Source: Gammaproteobacteria bacterium (GTDB lineage: Bacteria > Pseudomonadota > Gammaproteobacteria > Xanthomonadales > SZUA-36). From it: a stretch of DNA of 60,911 bases. Below are positions 1 through 18,270 of this stretch, piece by piece; the first letter of the stretch is position 1; each line of letters starts with the position of its first letter. The DNA lies in the NCBI GenBank assembly GCA_021772935.1, contig JAJFLA010000039.1, positions 1 through 60,911 of the forward strand, given 5' to 3'. The notes under the pieces were generated by a model. It was not told the DNA's origin. It saw only the letters and a program-made list of their open reading frames with translations, and did not search any database. Both the position numbers and the translations under genes were made by a program.

Positions 1-1988
1 ACCAACCCCCATGCCCCCTCCTGAGTCAATGCAGGCAGGTTGAAATTCAGTGGAACATCGGTCGCATTACACATGATGGCAACGGCACCTGAACGGGCGA
101 TATGATCGTCGGTAAGCCGCTTGTCCGTATCGAATAACAACAATGTCAAGGCACTATCATGGTGCCATTGATGTAACTCCATACGCTTTCCGGTTGGGTT
201 AAGCCATTCAATATCATGCCAACCAGTATCATTTTGCGTACACCCGTGCAGGTAATTCACTTTAAGCAAATGCGGTAACGCTCGGCGCAAGCAAAGCAAG
301 GCCTTTACCTGGTGAAAAAAGTCCGGGTCGGAATACAGACCTTTCCAATTCAGCCAGCCAAGCTCATTGTCCTGCGCATAGGCATTATTGTTACCCTGCT
401 GAGAATTGCCAAATTCATCGCCAGCCAACAGCATTGGCGTACCTTTCGACAGTAGTAGGGTGGCCATCATGCTCAGCCGTTGCTGGCGGCGCAGATTATT
501 AATTACCTTATCTTTTGTTTCACCCTCAACACCGCAATTGTAGCTAAAATTATGCGAATGGCCATCGTGGTTGTCTTCACCATTGGCCTCATTGTGACGC
601 GTTCCATAACTGACCAGGTCGTTGAGTGTGAAGCCGTCGTGGCTGGTGATAAAATTGATACTGGCCTGCGGCGACCGTCCGCTTGCCTCAAACAGATCGG
701 ATGAGCCATGCAAACGCTTCGCCAGGTCACTCAGTTGATCTGGGTCACCCCGCCAGAACCGTCGAACCTTGTCTCGGTAACGATCATTCCATTCGGCCCA
801 ACGTGATGGAAACTGTCCCAGGTGATAACCGTTTGGCCCCGGATCCCAGGGTTCTGCGATCAGTTTCGCCGTCGCTAATTCCGTCTGGTCATTAATTTGT
901 TTCAAAAGACTGTGTGACGGATCAAAACCTTGTGCGGCTCTGCCAAGAATCGGTGCAAGGTCAAACCGGAAACCGTCCACGGCCATTTCTTTGTGCCAAT
1001 AAACAAGACTGTCCAGCACCAGCGACTGTACCTGGGGGTGGTCAGCATTCAGCGTGTTACCACAGCCGCTGTCATTGATGTAGCAAGCGGGGTTGCCGGG
1101 CTCGGTACGATAGTACGCAAGGTTATCAATCCCCTTGAAACTCACTGATGGACCTTGCCCATTACCCTCGCCGGTATGGTTGTAGACCACATCCAGAATG
1201 ACTTCGATACCGGCATCATGGATGGCATCTACCATTTCCCGAAACTCACTGCCTGCCTCCTGATCGGCATAACGTGAAGCGGGTGTAAAAAAATTGATAC
1301 TGTTATAACCCCAGTAATTCCTCAGCCCACGGCCAACAAGAAAGGCTTCGTCGATAAAGGCGTGTACCGGCATTAATTCCAGTGAGGTGATACCGAGCGA
1401 GCGTAGGTACTCAAGAATTTTTTTGTTGCTCAGCCCTCGGAACTTACCACGTTCATGTTCCGGAATATCTGGGTGACACATAGTGTAACCACGGACACTA
1501 GCCTCATAGATAACGGTTTCCGCCCATGGAATACGTGGATGTTTGGGTTTTAGAGCAGGTGCTGCCCCGGTCACAATGCACTTGGGAACAAAAGCCGCAC
1601 TATCGGTCAGGTTTGCTTGTAAAGGACCTGCACCGTTGAGCGTTGAAAGGTCAAAATCGAACACAGCCCCGGCCCACTGAAAAGCACCATCCAGCGCACG
1701 GGCATAAGGATCAATCAAAAGCTTACCGGGGTTATGCCTCAACCCTTCTGCAGGGGCCCATGGTCCATGGATGCGATAACCATAGCGTTGGCCAGGCTCA
1801 CAACCCGGTAGATAACCATGCCAGACATCATCTTGCTGGTCCGGTAAACGGTAGCGTTGCGTTTCCCGCGCATTTGTGTCAAAAAGACAAAGCTCAACCA
1901 CCTCGGCAGTTGATGAATACAGAGCAAAATTAACGCCTTCTCCGTCCCAGTGACTGCCCAAACAACCCGGTCTTCCAGACTGGATCAT
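1..1988 (-). CDS. glgX: Glycogen debranching enzyme GlgX (3' end cut by window edge)
   Basis: Isoamylase-type GH13 enzyme that hydrolyses alpha-1,6 branches of the limit dextrin left by glycogen phosphorylase, in the cytoplasm. I translated the minus strand from the ATG at 1988; the frame stays open to base 1 (662 codons). An N-terminal beta-sandwich (WDGEGVNFALYSS) precedes the barrel. GH13 signatures are complete: DVVYNHT, GFRFDLA (nucleophile D343), LIAEPW (E379) and SHDGF (D451). The start overlaps the glgP stop by 4 bases (ATGA), which implies translational coupling. E. coli GlgX is about 657 residues, so only a short C-terminal tail should be missing. The identity is firm; the C-terminus cannot be judged. 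Confidence 0.93.
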   Translation of the reverse strand, partial: MIQSGRPGCLGSHWDGEGVNFALYSSTAEVVELCLFDTNARETQRYRLPDQQDDVWHGYLPGCEPGQRYGYRIHGPWAPAEGLRHNPGKLLIDPYARALDGAFQWAGAVFDFDLSTLNGAGPLQANLTDSAAFVPKCIVTGAAPALKPKHPRIPWAETVIYEASVRGYTMCHPDIPEHERGKFRGLSNKKILEYLRSLGITSLELMPVHAFIDEAFLVGRGLRNYWGYNSINFFTPASRYADQEAGSEFREMVDAIHDAGIEVILDVVYNHTGEGNGQGPSVSFKGIDNLAYYRTEPGNPACYINDSGCGNTLNADHPQVQSLVLDSLVYWHKEMAVDGFRFDLAPILGRAAQGFDPSHSLLKQINDQTELATAKLIAEPWDPGPNGYHLGQFPSRWAEWNDRYRDKVRRFWRGDPDQLSDLAKRLHGSSDLFEASGRSPQASINFITSHDGFTLNDLVSYGTRHNEANGEDNHDGHSHNFSYNCGVEGETKDKVINNLRRQQRLSMMATLLLSKGTPMLLAGDEFGNSQQGNNNAYAQDNELGWLNWKGLYSDPDFFHQVKALLCLRRALPHLLKVNYLHGCTQNDTGWHDIEWLNPTGKRMELHQWHHDSALTLLLFDTDKRLTDDHIARSGAVAIMCNATDVPLNFNLPALTQEGAWGL

Positions 1989-4507
1989 GGCGCCTCGGTT
2001 GAAACCAATTCGAGCTGCCAGATATCCTGATTGTATTCACGCATGGTGCGGTCGGTAGAAAACCGTCCTGATGCCGCAACGTTGAGAATGCTCATACGGG
2101 TCCAGCCCTGCTGGTCCTGATAAGCATTGCCCACAGCTTCTTGTGTATCAATAAAGCTACGGAAATCTGCAGCAGTCATCCATGGGTCCTGTGGGTCCCG
2201 AATGGCAGCAATCACATCATTCAATACGGCGGGTTCAAAGCGATTAAAGTGCCCGTTGTCCAGCAAGCGCATCACACGTCTGAAATCTTTGTCCGCATCA
2301 ATAATGGCCTGCGGGTCATAAACTTCCTGCAAGGCGGGAATCTCATCAACTGTCAGGCCAAACAGAAAAAAGTTTTCTTCACCCACAGCCTCCAGAATTT
2401 CAACATTCGCACCATCCAGTGTGCCGATGGTAACCGCGCCATTCATCATGAATTTCATATTACCCGTACCCGAAGCTTCTTTACCGGCGGTTGATATCTG
2501 TTCCGACAAATCTGCTGCAGGGCAAATCAGTTCCATCCCCGAAACGTTGTAATCGGGGTAAAAAACCAGTTGTAAGCGCCCATTCATGGCTGGATCCGTG
2601 TTGATAACTGCAGCCACATTATTGATAAGTTTGATGACGTTCTTCGCCATCTCATAACCCGGCGCAGATTTCCCACCAATGATGATCACGCGGGGTGGTA
2701 ACTGATCACCATCACCACGTTGTATTCGGTCATACAAATGTACTGCATGCAAAACGTTCAATAACTGACGCTTGTATTCATGAATACGTTTAACCTGAAC
2801 ATCAAATAACATGACAGGGTCAACAACAAGCCTGGTTTTACTTTCAATATTGGCAGCCAGGCGTGCTTTGTTGGCTTGCTTGACTGCTCGCCACTCATTC
2901 TGGAATACACGGTCGTCGGCCAATGGTCTGAGTTTTTCAAGTAAATCCAGATTCGTGACCCATTCAGAACCAATATGACCACTGATCAAGCTGGCCAGAT
3001 CGGGATTACAGCCAGCCAGCCAGCGCCTTTGTGTTACGCCATTGGTCTTATTATTAAACTTCTCCGGCCACAAAGCGGCAAAATCACTGAACAAGCCCTG
3101 TTTTAATAATCGTGAGTGCAATTCAGCAACCCCATTGACCGAAAAACTGCCAACGATGGCGAGATAAGCCATCCGTATCACTTTTTCAGGTGTCTCCTGT
3201 ATCAGCGACATTCGCCGAAGAATATCCAGGTCACCGGGCCAGCGATGGCTTACTTCAGACAGGAAACGTGCATTGATCTCAAAAATAATCTCTAAAACAC
3301 GTGGCAACAAGTGTTCAAACATTGCCACTGACCATGTCTCCAAAGCCTCCGGTAGCAAGGTATGGTTGGTATAAGCCATAGTGGATGTTGTGATTTGCCA
3401 GGCGGCGTCCCAGCCCAAGCCGTGCTGGTCCATCAACAGACGCATTAACTCCGGTACCGCAATGGCTGGGTGTGTATCGTTGAGCTGAAAGCAATGCTTA
3501 TCGGAAAAACACTTGAAATCAGTCCCATTGAGCCTGACCCAATCATGCAAAATATCCTGCAAACTTGCAGAAGCCAGAAAATATTGCTGACGTAAGCGTA
3601 ATTCACGACCATTTTCGGTTTCTGCATTTGGATACAACACCATCGTGATGTTTTCCGCTTCATTCTTGGCCGCCACCGCGTCGGTATAACTACCGGCGTT
3701 GAACTCCTCAAGATCAAATTCATCCGTTGCTGCCGCTGACCATAGCCGCAAGGTATTAACAACATCATTTTTATAACCGGGAATCGGTAAATCATAGGGA
3801 ACAGCCAGCACATCGTGGGTATCAACCCAATCGATATGAAGATTACCCAGAGAGTCTTTAATCCGTGTAACACGACCACCAAACTTGATTATCCGGGCGC
3901 GTTCAATGCGTTCTATTTCCCAAGGGTAGCCTTCCCTCAACCAGGAATCAGGTTCTTCCATCTGCCTGCCGTTTTCCAGCCGCTGACGAAACATACCAAA
4001 CTCATAACGAATGCCGTAGCCGGTTACCGGCAGACCCAGCGTTGCGCAACTATCCAGAAAACAGGCTGCCAACCTGCCAAGACCACCGTTACCCAAGCCG
4101 GCATCGTGTTCCTGTTGATGAATATCTTCCAACTGGATACCCAGCCGGTCCAATGCTTCACGGGTTTCATTGGTAATATCAAGGTTCAACAAGGCGTTGC
4201 GCAGCAAGCGGCCCATCAGAAACTCCAACGACAGGTAACAAGCACGCTTGCCATGACTTAATTCCAGCTTGTTACTGGTCTCAATCCACCGTTCCATCAG
4301 GCGGTCGCGGGTAGCATGCACCAATGCCTTGTAGAGAAAGTGCTCCTGCTTGTAGAGCGTGCGTCTTCCCAACATGCGGCTGTGATAATGAATAGTGTCA
4401 GCCAGGATGGCATCTGAATCCATACCAAGGGGCAACAGGTTCATTAACTCCATATGACCGGACTGGTGATTTACGGGCTTATCATCGTCTGACCGAACCA
4501 TTGACAT
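1985..4507 (-). CDS. glgP: Glycogen/maltodextrin phosphorylase
   Basis: PLP-dependent GT35 phosphorylase of 840 residues that releases glucose-1-phosphate from alpha-1,4 glucan ends. Visible family signatures include YLSLEFLMGR near the N-terminus, NGGLGRLAACFLDS, RIHEYKRQLLN and the PLP segment EASGTGNMKFMMNG, where Lys685 should carry the cofactor. The length matches bacterial GlgP/MalP. The ATG follows directly after the glgB TAG with GGAGA just upstream; a second ATG two codons later is also possible. It lies between glgB and glgX, the usual degradation pair. Substrate preference (glycogen versus maltodextrin) cannot be read from the sequence; the operon partners favour glycogen. Confidence 0.95.
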   Translation of the reverse strand: MSMVRSDDDKPVNHQSGHMELMNLLPLGMDSDAILADTIHYHSRMLGRRTLYKQEHFLYKALVHATRDRLMERWIETSNKLELSHGKRACYLSLEFLMGRLLRNALLNLDITNETREALDRLGIQLEDIHQQEHDAGLGNGGLGRLAACFLDSCATLGLPVTGYGIRYEFGMFRQRLENGRQMEEPDSWLREGYPWEIERIERARIIKFGGRVTRIKDSLGNLHIDWVDTHDVLAVPYDLPIPGYKNDVVNTLRLWSAAATDEFDLEEFNAGSYTDAVAAKNEAENITMVLYPNAETENGRELRLRQQYFLASASLQDILHDWVRLNGTDFKCFSDKHCFQLNDTHPAIAVPELMRLLMDQHGLGWDAAWQITTSTMAYTNHTLLPEALETWSVAMFEHLLPRVLEIIFEINARFLSEVSHRWPGDLDILRRMSLIQETPEKVIRMAYLAIVGSFSVNGVAELHSRLLKQGLFSDFAALWPEKFNNKTNGVTQRRWLAGCNPDLASLISGHIGSEWVTNLDLLEKLRPLADDRVFQNEWRAVKQANKARLAANIESKTRLVVDPVMLFDVQVKRIHEYKRQLLNVLHAVHLYDRIQRGDGDQLPPRVIIIGGKSAPGYEMAKNVIKLINNVAAVINTDPAMNGRLQLVFYPDYNVSGMELICPAADLSEQISTAGKEASGTGNMKFMMNGAVTIGTLDGANVEILEAVGEENFFLFGLTVDEIPALQEVYDPQAIIDADKDFRRVMRLLDNGHFNRFEPAVLNDVIAAIRDPQDPWMTAADFRSFIDTQEAVGNAYQDQQGWTRMSILNVAASGRFSTDRTMREYNQDIWQLELVSTEAP

Positions 4508-12373: not shown

Positions 12374-12618
12374 GCCCGGACATTTCACCAGGGTGGACGG
12401 TGGAGTCATATATTTTCATGTGAAACAAATGAATGGTGTACATGCATAGTAATTCTCAAATAAAACACTTTGTCCTATCCGGTTTTGCACAGCATCTGGC
12501 TTCACATTTCGGTCGATCCTCCTCGCACCATAGCTGAAGCTATGCTGCTTCGAACGATCAACCAAACTGTTTTGCCAGCTACAGCGCAATTCCCGTATCC
12601 CTGGTGAAATGTCCGGGC
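12374..12618. mobile_element. MITE-like element with 20-bp perfect terminal inverted repeats
   Basis: A 245-bp non-coding element whose ends are the perfect inverted repeat GCCCGGACATTTCACCAGGG (12374-12393 and its complement at 12599-12618). A TA dinucleotide flanks both sides (12372-12373 and 12619-12620), as expected for Tc1/mariner/IS630-type TA target duplication; that family link is inference. The interior contains a small hairpin (ATAGCTGAAGCTAT) and no transposase. The right junction continues as GCCCGG, repeating the first six bases of the terminus, so the exact boundary is uncertain. The TAG stop of the halogenase gene uses the right TA and the element's terminal base. Confidence 0.7.
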
Positions 12619-14129
12619 TAGCCCGGTGACCGGCAGTTTCTGCGGATATATTTATCATGAGTGGGCATCGTGTTGACTGCTTCCTTGATAACACGATGCA
12701 AACCAGCCAGTCGACGCTCTGCATCAACTTCGGTGCGCTCATCCACCAACGGATCATAGCGTTGTGGCCAATTTCCCTGACCAACATGCACTGCCAGCCA
12801 ATTCGGGTTCTGGAACAATTCGAAACCTTTGCTTACCAACCGACCATAGCGTCTGAAATGATCAATCTTGTATTGCAGCGTGTCGGGTATCGACATGTTG
12901 GCAACATAACGCCACAGTTCAGTATCCTTACGCTCCGTTATGCAATAGTGCAGGATAATAAAATCCCGGATACGCTCGAACTCCTGCACCGTCAGACGAT
13001 TGAATTCCTCGATCACCAAGGGATCAAAATCACGGTCGGGGAACAAGGCGAGAAAACGTGTAATACCAGATTGAATCAGGTGTAGTGCAGTGGATTCCAA
13101 GGGCTCCATAAAGCCACCTGAGAGGCCGATTGCAATACAGTTACGATTCCAAAACTGCTTACGTCTGCCAGTGGTGAACCGAAGTAAGCGCGGGTCCGCA
13201 AGCGGTTTACCATCCAGGTTGGCCATCAGGGTCGCAGCGGCCTCATCATCAGAGATGTAATCACTGCAATAGACATGCCCGTTGCCGGTGCGGTGTTGCA
13301 AAGGAATACGCCATTGCCAACCGGCATCTCTCGCCGTGGAACGTGTATGCGGCACCAACTCACCCGTCCTTTCACACGCGACAACCTGTGCACTGTTAAC
13401 CGGTAACCAATGGCTCCAGTCCTCAAAGCCTGTTTCCAGCGCCCGCTCTATCAACAAAGCCCTGAAGCCTGAGCAATCAATAAATAGATCGGCGGCGATT
13501 TTAAGCCCATCTTCCATCACGACATGTTTAATAAAGCCACTTTCAGCATCCAGCTTTACATCAACGACACGCCCCTCAGACCGCGTCACACCACGCACCT
13601 CTGAGTACTTTCGCAAATATTTTGCATACAGTCCGGCATCAAAATGATAGGCATAATCATAGGTAGATTGAACCTGCTGTGGATCCCGGGTCGGTCGACT
13701 GAAGCGACCATGAGAAGCGGCAACCCAGGCCATTGAATACTCATCCAGCGGTGTTGTATCGCCCATGGAACGGGCCCGTAACCAATAATGATGTAAAGGC
13801 ACCTTGTCAAAATCGGCACCATACTGACCAAAAGGGTGAAAATAACGGTGGTCCTTCTTGCCCCAGTTCACAAACTGAATACCCAGCTTGTAGGTCCCCT
13901 GCGTATGTTTCAGAAAATCATGTTCATCGATACCCAGGCTGGCATTAAAACTTTTCAATGGTGGGATGGTGGCTTCACCCACCCCTACAATCCCGATATC
14001 ATCTGATTCGATCAACTCGATCTGACAGGCACCGGTAAGGTTCTTTGCCAGTGCGGCAGCCGTCATCCAACCGGCCGAGCCGCCGCCAATGATGGCGATA
14101 CGACGGATATTTCTATTATTCTTGTCCAT
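12618..14129 (-). CDS. Flavin-dependent tryptophan-halogenase family protein
   Basis: 503-residue protein of the flavin-dependent halogenase family. The FAD motif IIGGGSAGWMTAAALAK is at residues about 13-29 (GGGSAG 15-20). Lys81 (GTYKLGIQF) matches the catalytic lysine of PrnA-type enzymes, and the family signature WxWxIP is WQWRIP at 271-276. All core features needed for FADH2-dependent halogenation are therefore present; the substrate is unknown. No flavin reductase is adjacent. Its relatives in sugar-utilisation loci often sit near Asp/Asn hydroxylases (recalled), and one lies just upstream here. The stop codon falls at the end of the MITE-like element, so the C-terminus may have been altered by that insertion. 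Confidence 0.85.
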   Translation of the reverse strand: MDKNNRNIRRIAIIGGGSAGWMTAAALAKNLTGACQIELIESDDIGIVGVGEATIPPLKSFNASLGIDEHDFLKHTQGTYKLGIQFVNWGKKDHRYFHPFGQYGADFDKVPLHHYWLRARSMGDTTPLDEYSMAWVAASHGRFSRPTRDPQQVQSTYDYAYHFDAGLYAKYLRKYSEVRGVTRSEGRVVDVKLDAESGFIKHVVMEDGLKIAADLFIDCSGFRALLIERALETGFEDWSHWLPVNSAQVVACERTGELVPHTRSTARDAGWQWRIPLQHRTGNGHVYCSDYISDDEAAATLMANLDGKPLADPRLLRFTTGRRKQFWNRNCIAIGLSGGFMEPLESTALHLIQSGITRFLALFPDRDFDPLVIEEFNRLTVQEFERIRDFIILHYCITERKDTELWRYVANMSIPDTLQYKIDHFRRYGRLVSKGFELFQNPNWLAVHVGQGNWPQRYDPLVDERTEVDAERRLAGLHRVIKEAVNTMPTHDKYIRRNCRSPG

Positions 14130-14233: not shown

Positions 14234-14989
14234 TTATTTCGCGTAAAAACCTTTCTCCCAGCGCTCATGGTTTCGACGAGCATCTCGCACCAGCGGACTG
14301 TAGCCAGCTGCAAACACCAGCAAACGATTCAACCAACTGATCGGCCACGCGCATGGCCGCAGGAAATCAATGAACAACACAACACGCTCGCCATCGGTGT
14401 CATTGTGTACTTCATGCTCAAGGGCATCGTCAAAAACCAGTACCTCACCGGGTTGCCAAAAACGCCGTTCCGAGGCCACACGTATCCAGCACTGTTCGGC
14501 GGGTTCCGGTATCACCAGACCCAGATGCAAACGTAGCACGCCATTGTAAGGCCCCCGGTGTGGTGGTAGTTTTTTACCCGGCTCAAGGATAGAAAAGAAT
14601 GCGGTTCGTAGATCGGGGATGTGGCGCAATGCCTTGTTAGTGGCAGGGCATTGTTCCAGGTTTCGTTCACAACGAAAGCCGTACCCCATTAGCATGAACG
14701 TTTTCCAGTGATCATCCTTGCTGATATAACCAACTTCCTTCGAAATGTCCTGAAAAGCTGGCAATTGATCCCGCATGGCGCGCACCGCATCCGCCTCGGC
14801 ACGCACCGCCGACCACTCAGATTTCAATTCTGCCAACCATGGGAAATAGGCTTCGTCAAAGAACGCTGTAGTACCAACGAGCGAGCTTCCCGCCACGCGG
14901 CGCTCCATCCAGTTGATAAGGCCAAAAACCACTTTTCCCAAAAAAGTGGTTGGTTGATTAAATGGGCGCTCGTCTTGGCTCATTGACAT
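14234..14989 (-). CDS. Aspartyl/asparaginyl beta-hydroxylase family dioxygenase
   Basis: 251-residue 2-oxoglutarate/Fe(II) dioxygenase of the AspH/LpxO/OlsC superfamily. The core reads LPPHRGPYNGVLRLHLGL (His144) and DDALEHEVHN followed by Arg202, the expected metal and 2-oxoglutarate ligands. Residues about 16-40 and 215-230 are hydrophobic, suggesting membrane association, as in LpxO. The start overlaps the NRDE gene; a second ATG at 14983 would give an ATGA overlap. Family members hydroxylate lipid acyl chains (LpxO, OlsC, OlsD) or peptide Asp/Asn. Being at the end of an acyltransferase operon favours a lipid substrate, but the halogenase next to it leaves the alternative open. Confidence 0.82.
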   Translation of the reverse strand: MSMSQDERPFNQPTTFLGKVVFGLINWMERRVAGSSLVGTTAFFDEAYFPWLAELKSEWSAVRAEADAVRAMRDQLPAFQDISKEVGYISKDDHWKTFMLMGYGFRCERNLEQCPATNKALRHIPDLRTAFFSILEPGKKLPPHRGPYNGVLRLHLGLVIPEPAEQCWIRVASERRFWQPGEVLVFDDALEHEVHNDTDGERVVLFIDFLRPCAWPISWLNRLLVFAAGYSPLVRDARRNHERWEKGFYAK

Positions 14990-15726
14990 GAGTCTCTGCG
15001 GAGTAAGCGAAGATTATAGTAGCCGGCCCCCTCGCAGGGTGAAATATCAGCTTGCGGTGAATAATGAAAGCGTGCCATCTGATCATCCATGGAAACTATA
15101 ATCTGTGAAATACTGTGTGTGCAGGCATCAGGGCGCGACATTCGTATGCCTGTCGCACCAGCATCACCTTCATGCCTGTGAAAAGCGCTAAGCTGTGCGG
15201 GGCTTGCTGCGGCCATATCACCGACCAGCATGGCAAAGGTCTCATGACGCGACTTTGCAACGGTCTTTGATCGAAATGCGGAAGTGGTCAGCATAGCGCC
15301 AGATGGGTTGAGTGTGGTGGAAATACAGTTCTGGCCATTCCAGCTTAAAACCGTCGCTTCATTTTTTCCCGAAACAACCAGGTGAAAGGGTGGAAAGTCT
15401 GCCAGTGGCATGGCCTCAACACGGCTGATCGCTGCAGCCACGCTGGCACAGTCAGAACAACTCAGAGGCAACATTCCACGCGAGCTTGGATCCACCTTAG
15501 TTACCGCTTGCGAGGCTGCGTAATTATTCAACAACCCAATACTGATCCCGTGTGCGTTGACAAGTAACCAGGTCCCGCCCCGTTCACCATCGGTAGGGGA
15601 AAGATACTCTACACCGTTTCTCTGTTGTAAGGTGGGTGCTCGTGCAGCAGCACGACTGCGGTTCTCATCGCGGTTGAAAAACAGCACATAGCTATTTTCC
15701 AACGGCTTCCAGCTTAGGGTGCACAT
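14980..15726 (-). CDS. NRDE (TANGO2-type) family protein
   Basis: 248-residue member of the NRDE/TANGO2 family, named for the motif seen here as FFNRDENRSR. I start at ATG 15726 so that the protein begins Met-Cys-Thr-Leu; a cysteine directly after the initiator is typical of this family. RGGTWLLVNAHG and GLLNNY are further family-like segments. In eukaryotes TANGO2 has been linked to haem and lipid handling; the bacterial role is not established. It overlaps the DinB-like gene by 13 bases and the hydroxylase gene by about 10, so all three are probably translated together. Confidence 0.85.
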   Translation of the reverse strand: MCTLSWKPLENSYVLFFNRDENRSRAAARAPTLQQRNGVEYLSPTDGERGGTWLLVNAHGISIGLLNNYAASQAVTKVDPSSRGMLPLSCSDCASVAAAISRVEAMPLADFPPFHLVVSGKNEATVLSWNGQNCISTTLNPSGAMLTTSAFRSKTVAKSRHETFAMLVGDMAAASPAQLSAFHRHEGDAGATGIRMSRPDACTHSISQIIVSMDDQMARFHYSPQADISPCEGAGYYNLRLLRRDSCQ

Positions 15727-16226
15727 TCGGCAAGCTGTGTCGCACAATGGCGTAGGGTTGAAGCCGCAACACCAAACTCATTCCCAACAGAAAAACCATG
15801 CAAACGGCAAATTACAGCTACAAGGGCATAATGATGAGTGGTATGACTCAACAGAAACTCAAGTTCACGCTTGGCCGAGGAACTGGCCTGCCCCGGACCA
15901 ACATCTCTTTCCACTAACAAGCAAGCATCATCCGGGGTTTCCGCCAGCTTCTCCAGACGCTCTCGCAACTTTGACATCTCAGCAATCGCATACACGCGGT
16001 CCTGTTCAAGACGAGTGTCCCGCTGACGTGCTGCATAATCGATGCAGCCACTTTCCAGCCCATTCAGGAAACAGGCATAGTGGTCCAGGTTATGACGTAT
16101 ATGTGTACCGATAGCACTCTGGAATACGGGCGGTGCAGGCTGGGTGTAAGCCAAATCACTCAGGTGTTGCAAGAGCATTTCACCTTGTTGCAAAGCCTCG
16201 ATATTCTCTCTGAGATTTATTTTCAT
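15714..16226 (-). CDS. DinB-like (YfiT/DinB four-helix) protein
   Basis: 170-residue protein resembling the DinB/YfiT metal-binding four-helix family. Histidines are placed as in that family: GTHIRHNLDHY near residue 45 and SHTTHHYALVAVI near residue 130, which could bind a divalent metal. Family members include thiol-dependent transferases and proteins of unknown role; nothing here identifies the substrate. The start overlaps the GNAT gene stop by 4 bases (ATGA), and the end overlaps the NRDE gene, so it belongs to the acyltransferase operon. Function remains open. Confidence 0.7.
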   Translation of the reverse strand: MKINLRENIEALQQGEMLLQHLSDLAYTQPAPPVFQSAIGTHIRHNLDHYACFLNGLESGCIDYAARQRDTRLEQDRVYAIAEMSKLRERLEKLAETPDDACLLVERDVGPGQASSSAKRELEFLLSHTTHHYALVAVICRLHGFSVGNEFGVAASTLRHCATQLAECAP

Positions 16227-17020
16227 GTCTGGCTCTGTACCGGGTCAGCATCAGGCTTGTATGCGAGATAAGCCCCGCCATCTTCACCGAGAAAAGTAGA
16301 TATGGTCTTTGGGGAGGCCTTGTCCATGTCAACCATGAGTAGCAGACCTGGTGTATTGTTGAAGTTGGGATCGACGGCAACGCAATGGAATTTTGCACCA
16401 ATCTTGTGATATTGCTTGACCAGGATGGGTAGGTCCTTACCGTCTGCATCCAGGCCACGGACACAGGCCGAAAGTGTTTTGAGATCGAGCTTTCCTTGTT
16501 CCTTTTGATAGCTCAACCATTCCGGATGCAACAACTGAGGCAGCGCGAGACGTGGGCGTAAACAGGGCAATGGTTCGATCAGCTCTGCGCACATCAAGGC
16601 AACGGCACGATCGTCGTACTGGCGTGATAGTGATACCGTGCCATACAAACGTCGATATTGAGGATGTGCGACCAGGAAACATCCAATCCCCCGCCATAAT
16701 AGATACAAGGAATGGAAGCTTTTTTGGTGTTCCGGCACCACGAACGAGCGACCTAGTTCAAGTGCGGGTGGCATGCTGTCATAAAACTGATCGTCAAACT
16801 CAAACATCTGTGTCAGGTAAATGCTGCTTGCTCCATGCGCTCGCAAGCAATCAGTTCTGCCCAGCCGGTACGCTCCTACCAGTGAATGTAGCTCATTATC
16901 CCAGACAAAAAGTTGTACGTAGGTCTGGTCGAAATCATCTCCATCCCGGGGCTCACCACTACCTTCGTCATATAGGCGGAACACTCTTTCACGCTCACGT
17001 GCAATGTCTTTCATTAACAC
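16223..17020 (-). CDS. GNAT-type N-acyltransferase (OlsB/hemolysin-like), likely C-terminal half of a PlsC-GNAT fusion
   Basis: Acyl-ACP-dependent N-acyltransferase domain of the ornithine/glycine-lipid type (OlsB/GlsB, COG3176-like). Recognised from VQLFVWDNELHSLVGAYRLG, ALELGRSFVVPEHQ and LYLLWRGIGCFL, which carry the acyl-ACP N-acyltransferase pattern. The 265-codon frame can only begin at GTG 17020 or ATG 17014, but the same frame continues upstream as FSVFYAQAQQIP up to a TAA at 17057-17059 and then into the PlsC-like gene. FSVFYAQAQQIP resembles the linker of fused PlsC-GNAT proteins (recalled). No good ribosome binding site precedes the GTG. It may be a separately initiated protein, a broken half, or made by readthrough. 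Confidence 0.75.
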   Translation of the reverse strand: MLMKDIARERERVFRLYDEGSGEPRDGDDFDQTYVQLFVWDNELHSLVGAYRLGRTDCLRAHGASSIYLTQMFEFDDQFYDSMPPALELGRSFVVPEHQKSFHSLYLLWRGIGCFLVAHPQYRRLYGTVSLSRQYDDRAVALMCAELIEPLPCLRPRLALPQLLHPEWLSYQKEQGKLDLKTLSACVRGLDADGKDLPILVKQYHKIGAKFHCVAVDPNFNNTPGLLLMVDMDKASPKTISTFLGEDGGAYLAYKPDADPVQSQT

Positions 17021-17056
17021 GGGAATTTGTTGGGCCTGTGCATAGAAAACTGAAAA

Positions 17057-17992
17057 TTATTTAAAATCCAGCAATCGTTGCTGTTTGGGTAAAGCAGCCA
17101 ACTCCTGTTCAATGAGTGTTGCTTCACTAAGGGCCGCCAATGGTGCCAGGTGTGCAGAAACAATCGGGTTATCCGTCCGCTCCCGAGTGCGTGCTTGCAA
17201 AAGGTATGTCATCAAACGTGCGTAACGTGTCAGTGATCGTGCATCCAGATGACGCCACGCATTTTCAGGGATGGCATGACCCAGCTCGAATCGTACGCTC
17301 TTACCCTTCATGCGAATAAGCTCGCGAGGTAGCAGCAATAGCTTGGAACGGTCCCACAAATTACCAAGAGCTTGAAACATTGGGCTGTTGGCACCGTTGA
17401 AAAACACCGGCAATATGGGTGCACCGGTGCGTTTAGCAAGATGGCCGACGATACGGTTCCATTCACCATCCTGGACACGATCGCCGCCACGAGGGCGAAA
17501 TGAAACCTTGCCTGCAGGAAAAATGACCAGCACACCACCTTTGCCAAGATGGTCTTCACACTGACGGATAGGTGCAAGATTTCGCTGGCTGACTTTTAAC
17601 GGGTTAATGGCAACAAAAATCGGCTGCAATTCACGAAAAACCTGCAGGCCGGTATTGGCCAGAAATTTGATATCTGTTCGCACAGCTTTGAGTGCTTGCG
17701 CCAACACCAACATCTCGACCCCGCCGAAGGGGTGGTTGCTTACCACCAGCAGTGGTCCCTTTTTTGGGATGCGATCCTCTATTTCAAAGGGTCCGGATTG
17801 TGCACGTATATCCAGCAAGCCAAGACCGCCCTCCACAAACTCAAATGGCGACAAACCTTGTAACTGGCTATATACCTGATCCACCGCTGGCAAACCAAGC
17901 AGTCGATCCGCCAGTGGCGCTAAAGTCTTCAGCCAAGCCGGTGTCCCACGCGGCGCCAGCGCGCGCAAACTAATTCGTGTTTCAGTACGCAT
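17057..17992 (-). CDS. PlsC-like acyltransferase (OlsA/GlsA type), N-terminal half of a probable fusion
   Basis: 311-residue 1-acyl-glycerol-phosphate-type O-acyltransferase. The catalytic motif is SNHPFGGVEM (His87, Glu93), the acceptor-phosphate-like block reads IFPAGKVSFRP, and PILPVFFNGANS follows; HPFGG..E and FPAG are the variants found in the aminolipid branch rather than classical PlsC (recalled). It ends LLDFK-TAA, and the next codons in the same frame begin the GNAT domain; together they would make 589 residues, near the size of known fused proteins. It is first of an operon with GNAT, DinB-like, NRDE and hydroxylase genes. Likely role: O-acylation of an N-acyl amino acid at the inner membrane. 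Confidence 0.78.
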   Translation of the reverse strand: MRTETRISLRALAPRGTPAWLKTLAPLADRLLGLPAVDQVYSQLQGLSPFEFVEGGLGLLDIRAQSGPFEIEDRIPKKGPLLVVSNHPFGGVEMLVLAQALKAVRTDIKFLANTGLQVFRELQPIFVAINPLKVSQRNLAPIRQCEDHLGKGGVLVIFPAGKVSFRPRGGDRVQDGEWNRIVGHLAKRTGAPILPVFFNGANSPMFQALGNLWDRSKLLLLPRELIRMKGKSVRFELGHAIPENAWRHLDARSLTRYARLMTYLLQARTRERTDNPIVSAHLAPLAALSEATLIEQELAALPKQQRLLDFK

Positions 17993-18009: not shown

Positions 18010-18270
18010 CTAGGAGCCTGTCGGACTTAACATGATCTACTCGGCAAACAGCTCCTGCGTTGCTCTACCTCCTGCTTCCCTGCAGTCGTACGGAATAGCC
18101 GAGTTTGGCCAGATTCTCCGCTCTTTTGCGTCACACGCGGTCCCATAATTTGCTTAAAAGACCGAAAAACCTGACTCAAATCGGCTTTTACCCCAGGGCA
18201 CTTTCTCTTAATGCTGAGCATCAATTCACCTTGCCCTCGCTACGATCCGTCAAACCCGACAGGTTCCTAG
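18010..18270. mobile_element. MITE-like element with imperfect inverted ends and CTAG flanks
   Basis: A 261-bp segment bounded by CTAG (18010-18013 and 18267-18270). Immediately inside are imperfect inverted repeats, GAGCCTGTCGGACTT on the left and the complement of GAACCTGTCGGGTTT on the right. CTAG as a 4-bp duplicated target is typical of the IS5 group (recalled), so this may be a non-autonomous IS5-related element. It has no convincing gene: a 65-codon minus-strand frame inside has no family resemblance. It lies just upstream of the PlsC-like gene, where it could supply or displace a promoter. Confidence 0.6.

What the first reader, a model, noticed from the sequence alone, without database searches (positions are those of the whole stretch)
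16223..17992. A PlsC-GNAT aminolipid synthase split by one in-frame TAA
Seen: the PlsC-like frame ends LLDFK-TAA (17057-17059) and the very same frame continues as FSVFYAQAQQIP into the GNAT gene with no further stop; total 589 residues. Known (recalled): many bacteria encode these two domains as one protein of about this size, with a linker resembling FSVFYAQAQQIP before the GNAT fold. The GNAT half has no ATG or ribosome site that preserves this linker. So either a recent nonsense change, a sequencing error, programmed readthrough, or a real split with reinitiation.
Basis: partly seen in the sequence, partly recalled or inferred. Interest (0 to 1): 0.7.

Follow-up and report, generated by a model that had tools for sequence, protein, structure and literature searches.

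The report
Aminolipid synthase gene with internal stop
A bacterial gene for a two-part membrane-lipid enzyme carries one in-frame stop codon in a place where its close relatives read straight through, which most likely means a recently broken gene (or a sequence error) rather than a new kind of gene organisation.

Summary
On the minus strand (17992 to 16223) an OlsF-like aminolipid synthase gene (PF19576 acyltransferase plus PF13444 GNAT) is cut by one in-frame TAA at 17057-17059; the frame has no other stop. Fusion is ancestral: four close homologues are fused, with a sense codon at that column and no indel around it, and 149 of 149 other full-length matches listed for the order (a capped list) lack an internal stop. 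On a model of the same-genus homologue, FSVFYAQ is a strand of the GNAT domain, not a linker, so the stop falls inside that domain. The first in-frame starts (codons 13 and 15) come after this strand, with weak or no Shine-Dalgarno match. No UUA-anticodon tRNA (incomplete tRNA set) or stimulatory RNA structure was found. It is the genome's only PF13444 match. A 257-bp multi-copy inverted-repeat element lies 19 bp upstream of the start codon. Both halves are as conserved as in intact relatives. Best reading: a recent nonsense allele of an accessory gene, with a consensus error as main rival; functional split and readthrough are unlikely but not excluded. Reads or proteomics would decide.

The parts
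17060..17992 (-). PlsC-like (PF19576) O-acyltransferase half, 311 codons, ATG start at 17992
   Evidence: Pfam PF19576 6.9e-17, PF01553 1.7e-7; NCBIfam OlsF profile 22-278 of 570
17057..17059 (-). in-frame TAA inside the gene; sense codon in the 4 close relatives
16226..17056 (-). GNAT N-acyltransferase half (PF13444), 277 codons in the same frame; its stop is 16223-16225
   Evidence: Pfam PF13444 2.5e-17; OlsF profile 312-567 of 570; the only PF13444 match in the genome
17018..17020 (-). GTG, first possible restart in frame (codon 13 after the stop)
   Evidence: duplex with anti-SD -2.5 kcal/mol at spacing 11
17012..17014 (-). ATG, second possible restart in frame (codon 15 after the stop)
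   Evidence: duplex with anti-SD +0.6 kcal/mol, that is none
15714..16226 (-). DinB_2-like gene, start overlaps the stop of the GNAT half by four bases
   Evidence: PF12867 2.4e-4, 22.0 bits, below its cut-off of 24.8; neighbour of OlsF in several relatives
14980..15747 (-). TANGO2-family gene (start codon uncertain)
   Evidence: PF05742 3.5e-13; neighbour of OlsF in relatives
14234..14989 (-). OlsC-like aspartyl/asparaginyl hydroxylase
   Evidence: PF05118 5.4e-49; NF052565 3.8e-84, 281.9 bits against a cut-off of 450; 78% identical neighbour of OlsF in same-genus G003
18012..18268 (.). 257-bp multi-copy inverted-repeat (MITE-like) element, 19 bp upstream of the ATG at 17992
   Evidence: the repeat finder itself did not report the imperfect ends

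Best explanation
This is a single OlsF-like gene (one polypeptide that N-acylates an amino acid with its GNAT half and O-acylates the product with its PlsC-like half) that has recently acquired a nonsense change, so the strain as sequenced probably makes only a truncated O-acyltransferase half and no aminolipid by this route. Shown: ancestral fusion, replacement of a sense codon without an indel, otherwise intact frame, position of the stop between two predicted strands at the start of the GNAT domain, no in-frame restart that keeps the second of these strands, no second PF13444 match in the genome. Inferred: that the stop is real in the organism, that termination is efficient there, and that the enzyme is therefore inactive. 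The patchy presence of the gene (4 of 39 family genomes) fits a dispensable, easily lost trait, and the repeat element beside the start codon may be a second lesion.
For: Close homologues L003 (same genus), L004, L005 (same family) and L021 are one open frame through the site. Family: 4 of 39 genomes carry the full gene, 3 of 3 others uninterrupted. The stop column is residue 309 of L003; strands 303-306 and 310-316 flank it, helix 321-337 follows, and the low-confidence inter-domain stretch is 267-278. Standalone N-acyltransferases extend further upstream: GlsB profile position 31 meets residue 3 of the window's GNAT piece. In the one two-gene layout seen (G123) the in-frame starts of the GNAT gene lie 28-57 residues upstream of that column. 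81 of 81 residues invariant among 10 fused homologues are kept by the window halves, and leave-one-out deviation is 9 of 142 and 6 of 157, like the intact relatives, so any break is recent. One PF13444 match in the genome.
Against: No reads, second strain or expression data, so the stop itself is not proven. Both halves look fully constrained and the downstream DinB-like, TANGO2 and OlsC-like genes align nearly end to end with relatives, which also fits a functional gene or a mere sequence error. The neutral simulation has little power: the chance of no further stop is 0.52 at 1% and 0.12 at 3% neutral divergence. The Shine-Dalgarno argument is modest, because the DinB-like and OlsC-like starts are as weak (-3.0 and -2.9 kcal/mol).
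Confidence: 0.64

Rival explanations
1. Sequencing, assembly or consensus error, or a minority strain variant, in a draft assembly; the living gene is intact.
For: A single substitution is enough; everything else in the gene is intact and the downstream genes align nearly end to end with relatives. The assembly is a draft of 56 contigs with 98.02% completeness and 2.29% contamination.
Against: The site is 16 kb inside a 61-kb contig and has no long homopolymer. In 279 kb of this genome no other gene interrupted by an in-frame stop was recognised, though only 5 of the 16 other in-frame ORF pairs were tested with Pfam and frameshifts were not surveyed. The repeat element beside the start codon is an independent sign of a disturbed locus.
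Confidence: 0.2
2. A real gene split: the PlsC half ends at the TAA and ribosomes restart at GTG 17020 or ATG 17014 to make a separate GNAT protein.
For: The two activities exist as separate genes elsewhere: GlsA/GlsB and OlsA/OlsB (passages of PMC11631085), and G123 has a PlsC gene followed by a GNAT gene in another frame. The stop-to-start distance is only 36-42 bases. The DinB-like start overlaps the GNAT stop, which would suit translation up to there.
Against: A product from codon 13 or 15 would lack the strand FSVFYAQ of the GNAT domain. Weak or no Shine-Dalgarno match. In G123 the GNAT starts lie 28-57 residues upstream of this point. None of the four close homologues shares the split.
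Confidence: 0.08
3. Programmed or leaky stop-codon readthrough that yields a little full-length enzyme.
For: The whole downstream frame is as conserved as in intact relatives.
Against: The tetranucleotide is TAAT, recalled as an efficient terminator in E. coli. RNA from the stop onwards folds no better than shuffles, z +0.61. No UUA anticodon among 39 tRNA genes read out of 40 RF00005 matches, although that set is incomplete, with no tRNA-Ile in it. No relative examined has a stop at this place, so nothing is conserved to be programmed.
Confidence: 0.06

Closest known systems
OlsF, bifunctional ornithine lipid synthase (Serratia proteamaculans; NCBIfam NF052615)
   Same: Same domain order, PF19576 then PF13444, and both halves collinear with the model; PF19576 at the OlsF N-terminus agrees with passages read in PMC11631085.
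   Different: Interrupted by TAA. Intact close homologues score only 321-336 bits against the model's cut-off of 620, so the head group need not be ornithine.
GlsA/GlsB glycine lipid synthases of Bacteroides
   Same: The same two activities as separate proteins; their models match the two halves (GlsA 102.2 bits, GlsB 99.4 bits, cut-offs 260 and 300).
   Different: Separate genes, and the GlsB model reaches about 28 residues further upstream than the window's GNAT piece. That glsB comes first in the operon is recalled, not tested.
OlsA/OlsB two-gene ornithine lipid pathway
   Same: Two-step N- then O-acylation; OlsB is a PF13444 enzyme (passages of PMC11631085).
   Different: OlsA carries PF01553, OlsF PF19576, according to those passages; the window's PlsC half matches both, PF19576 better (61.7 against 31.6 bits). 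The OlsB models match the GNAT piece weakly (41 bits).

Membership tests
OlsF bifunctional ornithine lipid synthase | N-terminal PF19576 acyltransferase domain | tested here: met
   61.7 bits, cut-off 27
OlsF bifunctional ornithine lipid synthase | C-terminal PF13444 GNAT domain | tested here: met
   63.9 bits, cut-off 22.4
OlsF bifunctional ornithine lipid synthase | both domains in one uninterrupted polypeptide | tested here: not met
   TAA between them in the window; met in the 4 close relatives
OlsF bifunctional ornithine lipid synthase | score over NCBIfam equivalog cut-off (620 bits) | tested here: not met
   halves 154.9 and 166.1 bits; intact close relatives 320.9-335.7; a more distant member of the order 592.9, also below
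OlsF bifunctional ornithine lipid synthase | forms ornithine lipid when expressed | not testable with these tools
   needs lipid analysis
Two-gene aminolipid synthase (OlsBA or GlsBA layout) | GNAT gene with its own start and a complete GNAT domain | tested here: not met
   first starts at codons 13 and 15 after the stop, past the strand, weak or no Shine-Dalgarno match
Programmed stop-codon readthrough | stop conserved among relatives at the same place | tested here: not met
   0 of 4 close homologues and 0 of 149 other listed matches of the order have an internal stop; three of the four close homologues are among the 149
Programmed stop-codon readthrough | stimulatory RNA structure or suppressor tRNA | tested here: inconclusive
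   z +0.61 for 106 nt from the stop onwards; no UUA anticodon among 39 tRNA genes read, but 1 of 40 RF00005 matches was not read and the set lacks tRNA-Ile, so it is incomplete
Programmed stop-codon readthrough | full-length product in cells | not testable with these tools
   needs proteomics

The most novel reading that the evidence does not exclude
The TAA is a working switch: the cell makes mostly a stand-alone O-acyltransferase and, by low readthrough or restart, a little N-acyltransferase, so that aminolipid output is set by translation at this codon, an early stage of fission of a fused enzyme.
Probability: 0.06. Interest if true: 0.6.

Novelty: new member of a known kind. Interest (0 to 1): 0.2.

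Why it matters
As found, it is a warning for lipid-trait annotation: domain searches would call this genome capable of aminolipid synthesis although its only PF13444 gene is interrupted. It also points to an OlsF-like clade that scores well below the ornithine lipid model and has recurring neighbours (DinB-like, TANGO2-family, OlsC-like), which may make or modify a different aminolipid. If the split were functional it would be an unusual example of a fused enzyme coming apart.

Tried and rejected
Genetic-code change: TAA as a sense codon throughout the genome is rejected, since TAA ends 7 of the 32 main window ORFs counted, the OlsC-like gene among them, and no UUA-anticodon tRNA was found in an incomplete set (39 of 40 RF00005 matches read). 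A second intact copy: one full match in the genome and one PF13444 match. Apparent stops in other OlsF of the order (65 of 149 rows): all terminal, a result of matches running past the end. Old pseudogene: not supported, no further stop or frameshift and normal conservation. dN/dS on the lineage: uninformative, synonymous sites saturated; the Biopython routine failed for most pairs and I wrote a simple NG86 count.

Naturally split OlsF in the order: of 8 lower-scoring genomes looked at besides G000, G123 is a two-gene layout in different frames, G164 has three pieces in different frames, G269 and G105 look cut by contig ends, G130 and G185 are full length and divergent (the TGA flagged in G185 lies before its 593-codon frame), G053 and G224 have only weak separate matches. 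The other matches below the 150 listed rows were not examined. That listing favours intact genes, so breakage elsewhere is undercounted.

Other searches: viral contigs (no relative); 369 genomes of the class at E up to 1e-60 (one match besides the window's own, G535, one frame of 614, 48% identical); papers holding OlsF and DinB (0 papers); aminolipid and readthrough paper searches (listings only). Promoter and terminator scans were at chance level (1 promoter-like against 3.5 expected, on the plus strand; 4 terminator-like against 3.0, one of them directly before the TAA at 17083-17069). The first PDB match of the model (7uci) spans both domains with a poor superposition; only the PlsC (5kym) and acyl-homoserine lactone synthase (1k4j, 5w8c) matches are used as support for the folds. 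By sequence only 5kym matched.

Full report
What is there. On the minus strand, 17992 to 16223, one reading frame holds 311 codons from an ATG, a TAA at 17057-17059, and 277 further codons to a final stop. The first part is a PF19576/PF01553 acyltransferase, the second a PF13444 GNAT. NCBIfam's bifunctional ornithine lipid synthase OlsF matches both parts in order, positions 22-278 and 312-567 of its 570, each part below the cut-off for the whole. Passages read in the review PMC11631085 state that OlsF carries PF19576 at its N-terminus and that aminolipid N-acyltransferases share PF13444; passages of PMC11001654 describe OlsF as one protein with an N-acyl- and an O-acyltransferase domain, and passages of PMC12186959 describe a 581-residue homologue in Vibrio cholerae.

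The fused form is ancestral. Among 60 relatives plus the genome itself, 17 of 61 match the GNAT half, the genome itself included. The same-genus homologue (L003, 78% over the GNAT half), two family homologues (L004 75%, L005 72%) and a fourth from another record (L021, 69%) each run through the site in one open frame. At the stop column all four have a sense codon, with no insertion or deletion around it. In the family, 4 of 39 genomes have the full gene and the other three are uninterrupted. In the order, 398 genomes were searched and the listing shows 150 full-length rows (hand count): the window's genome is the only one with an internal stop; 84 of the other 149 had none and 65 were flagged. 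I fetched all 65, and every stop was 0-4 residues from the end of the match. The listing is capped at the best matches and so favours intact genes; matches further down were not examined apart from 8 lower-scoring genomes. Of these, one (G123) has a PlsC gene and a GNAT gene in different frames, and one (G164) has three pieces in different frames.

Where the stop falls. AlphaFold2 on the intact same-genus homologue (589 residues, 10-row alignment, mean pLDDT 75.8, pTM 0.53) puts the poorly predicted inter-domain stretch at 267-278, a helix at 288-296, strands at 303-306 and 310-316, and a helix at 321-337. The stop column is residue 309. So FSVFYAQ is a confidently predicted strand (pLDDT 90 and 96 in its two blocks of ten) at the start of the GNAT domain, and the stop separates it from the preceding short strand. 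That the two form a hairpin is my inference from order and spacing; coordinates were not inspected. Foldseek finds PlsC (5kym) and acyl-homoserine lactone synthases (1k4j, 5w8c) among the best matches, which supports the two folds. A restart at GTG codon 13 or ATG codon 15 would lose this strand, and their Shine-Dalgarno matches are weak or absent. The DinB-like and OlsC-like starts of the same operon are weak too, so that argument alone is modest. In G123 the in-frame starts of the separate GNAT gene lie 28-57 residues upstream of the column, and the GlsB model likewise extends about 28 residues further upstream.

How old is the change. All 81 residues invariant among ten intact homologues are kept in the window halves. 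At positions where the four close homologues agree, the window deviates in 9 of 142 (PlsC half) and 6 of 157 (GNAT half); for each intact relative tested in the same way the figures range from 8 of 141 to 16 of 149, and from 5 of 156 to 10 of 161. pN/pS of the window pairs (0.28-0.38 and 0.20-0.28) is no higher than that of the other pairs (0.31-0.42 and 0.22-0.30), with synonymous sites saturated. Under a simple neutral simulation the chance of no further stop is 0.52 at 1%, 0.12 at 3% and 0.04 at 5% divergence. The change is therefore recent, or tolerated with function kept, or not real; these data do not separate the three.

Against recoding. The context is TAAT, recalled as an efficient terminator. 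The RNA from the stop onwards folds no better than shuffles (z +0.61). Of 40 RF00005 matches in the genome, 39 were read as tRNAs and none has a UUA anticodon, but no tRNA-Ile is among them, so the set is incomplete. TAA ends 7 of 32 main window ORFs. In 279 kb of this genome (the window and 12 stretches) 17 unshadowed pairs of ORFs sit in one frame around a single stop, this gene among them; 5 of the 16 other pairs were scanned with Pfam and none splits one family, and 11 were not scanned.

Consequences and setting. This is the only PF13444 match in the genome. The downstream DinB-like, TANGO2-family and OlsC-like ORFs overlap in series and align nearly end to end with relatives. Relatives keep parts of the same module: OlsC-like beside OlsF in same-genus G003, DinB-like in G014, DinB-like and TANGO2 in G026 and L021, both nearby in opposite orientation in G535, and DinB-like before the two-gene version in G123. 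A 257-bp element with imperfect inverted ends lies at 18012-18268, 19 bp upstream of the ATG. The region has 37 matching places in the genome, the window's own and pieces of single copies counted apart; 12 distinct end-bounded copies of 77-257 bp were seen among the loci examined. It was not found in the stretches held around the gene in G003, G014, G026 and L021. It may have displaced the promoter or ribosome site, or may supply one; this is untested.

Verdict. The most probable explanation is a recent nonsense allele of an accessory, OlsF-like aminolipid synthase gene (0.64). A consensus error or strain mixture comes next (0.20). Functional split with restart (0.08) and readthrough (0.06) are unlikely. 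Because the single-polypeptide feature and the OlsF equivalog cut-off were tested and not met, I call it OlsF-like rather than an OlsF, and the amino acid used is unknown.

Noticed in passing
18012-18268: 257-bp multi-copy inverted-repeat (MITE-like) element with ends near AGGARCCTGTCGG, 19 bp upstream of the synthase start; 37 matching places in the genome, pieces counted apart, 12 distinct copies of 77-257 bp seen. No autonomous transposon was looked for.
   Followed up: partly
14234-16226: Recurring neighbours of the OlsF-like gene (DinB_2-like, TANGO2 family, OlsC-like hydroxylase) lie beside it in several relatives, even with the arrangement changed. What DinB-like and TANGO2 proteins would do in aminolipid metabolism is unknown to me; no held paper had both the terms OlsF and DinB.
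   Followed up: partly
L136 (G123:C44), 833-3257: A divergent two-gene version: DinB-like gene, then a PlsC-like gene, then a GNAT gene in another frame with about 100 bases of open-frame overlap.
   Followed up: partly
L135, L140 and L145 (G164:C2, 1249551-1251276): OlsF of a 2-contig genome in three pieces in different frames: a broken gene or sequence errors.
   Followed up: no
17083-17069, minus strand: Terminator-like stem with a T-containing tail directly before the internal TAA; such matches were at chance level in the region.
   Followed up: no
12618-14129: Tryptophan-halogenase family gene (PF04820, 2.9e-192) next to the aminolipid operon on the same strand.
   Followed up: no
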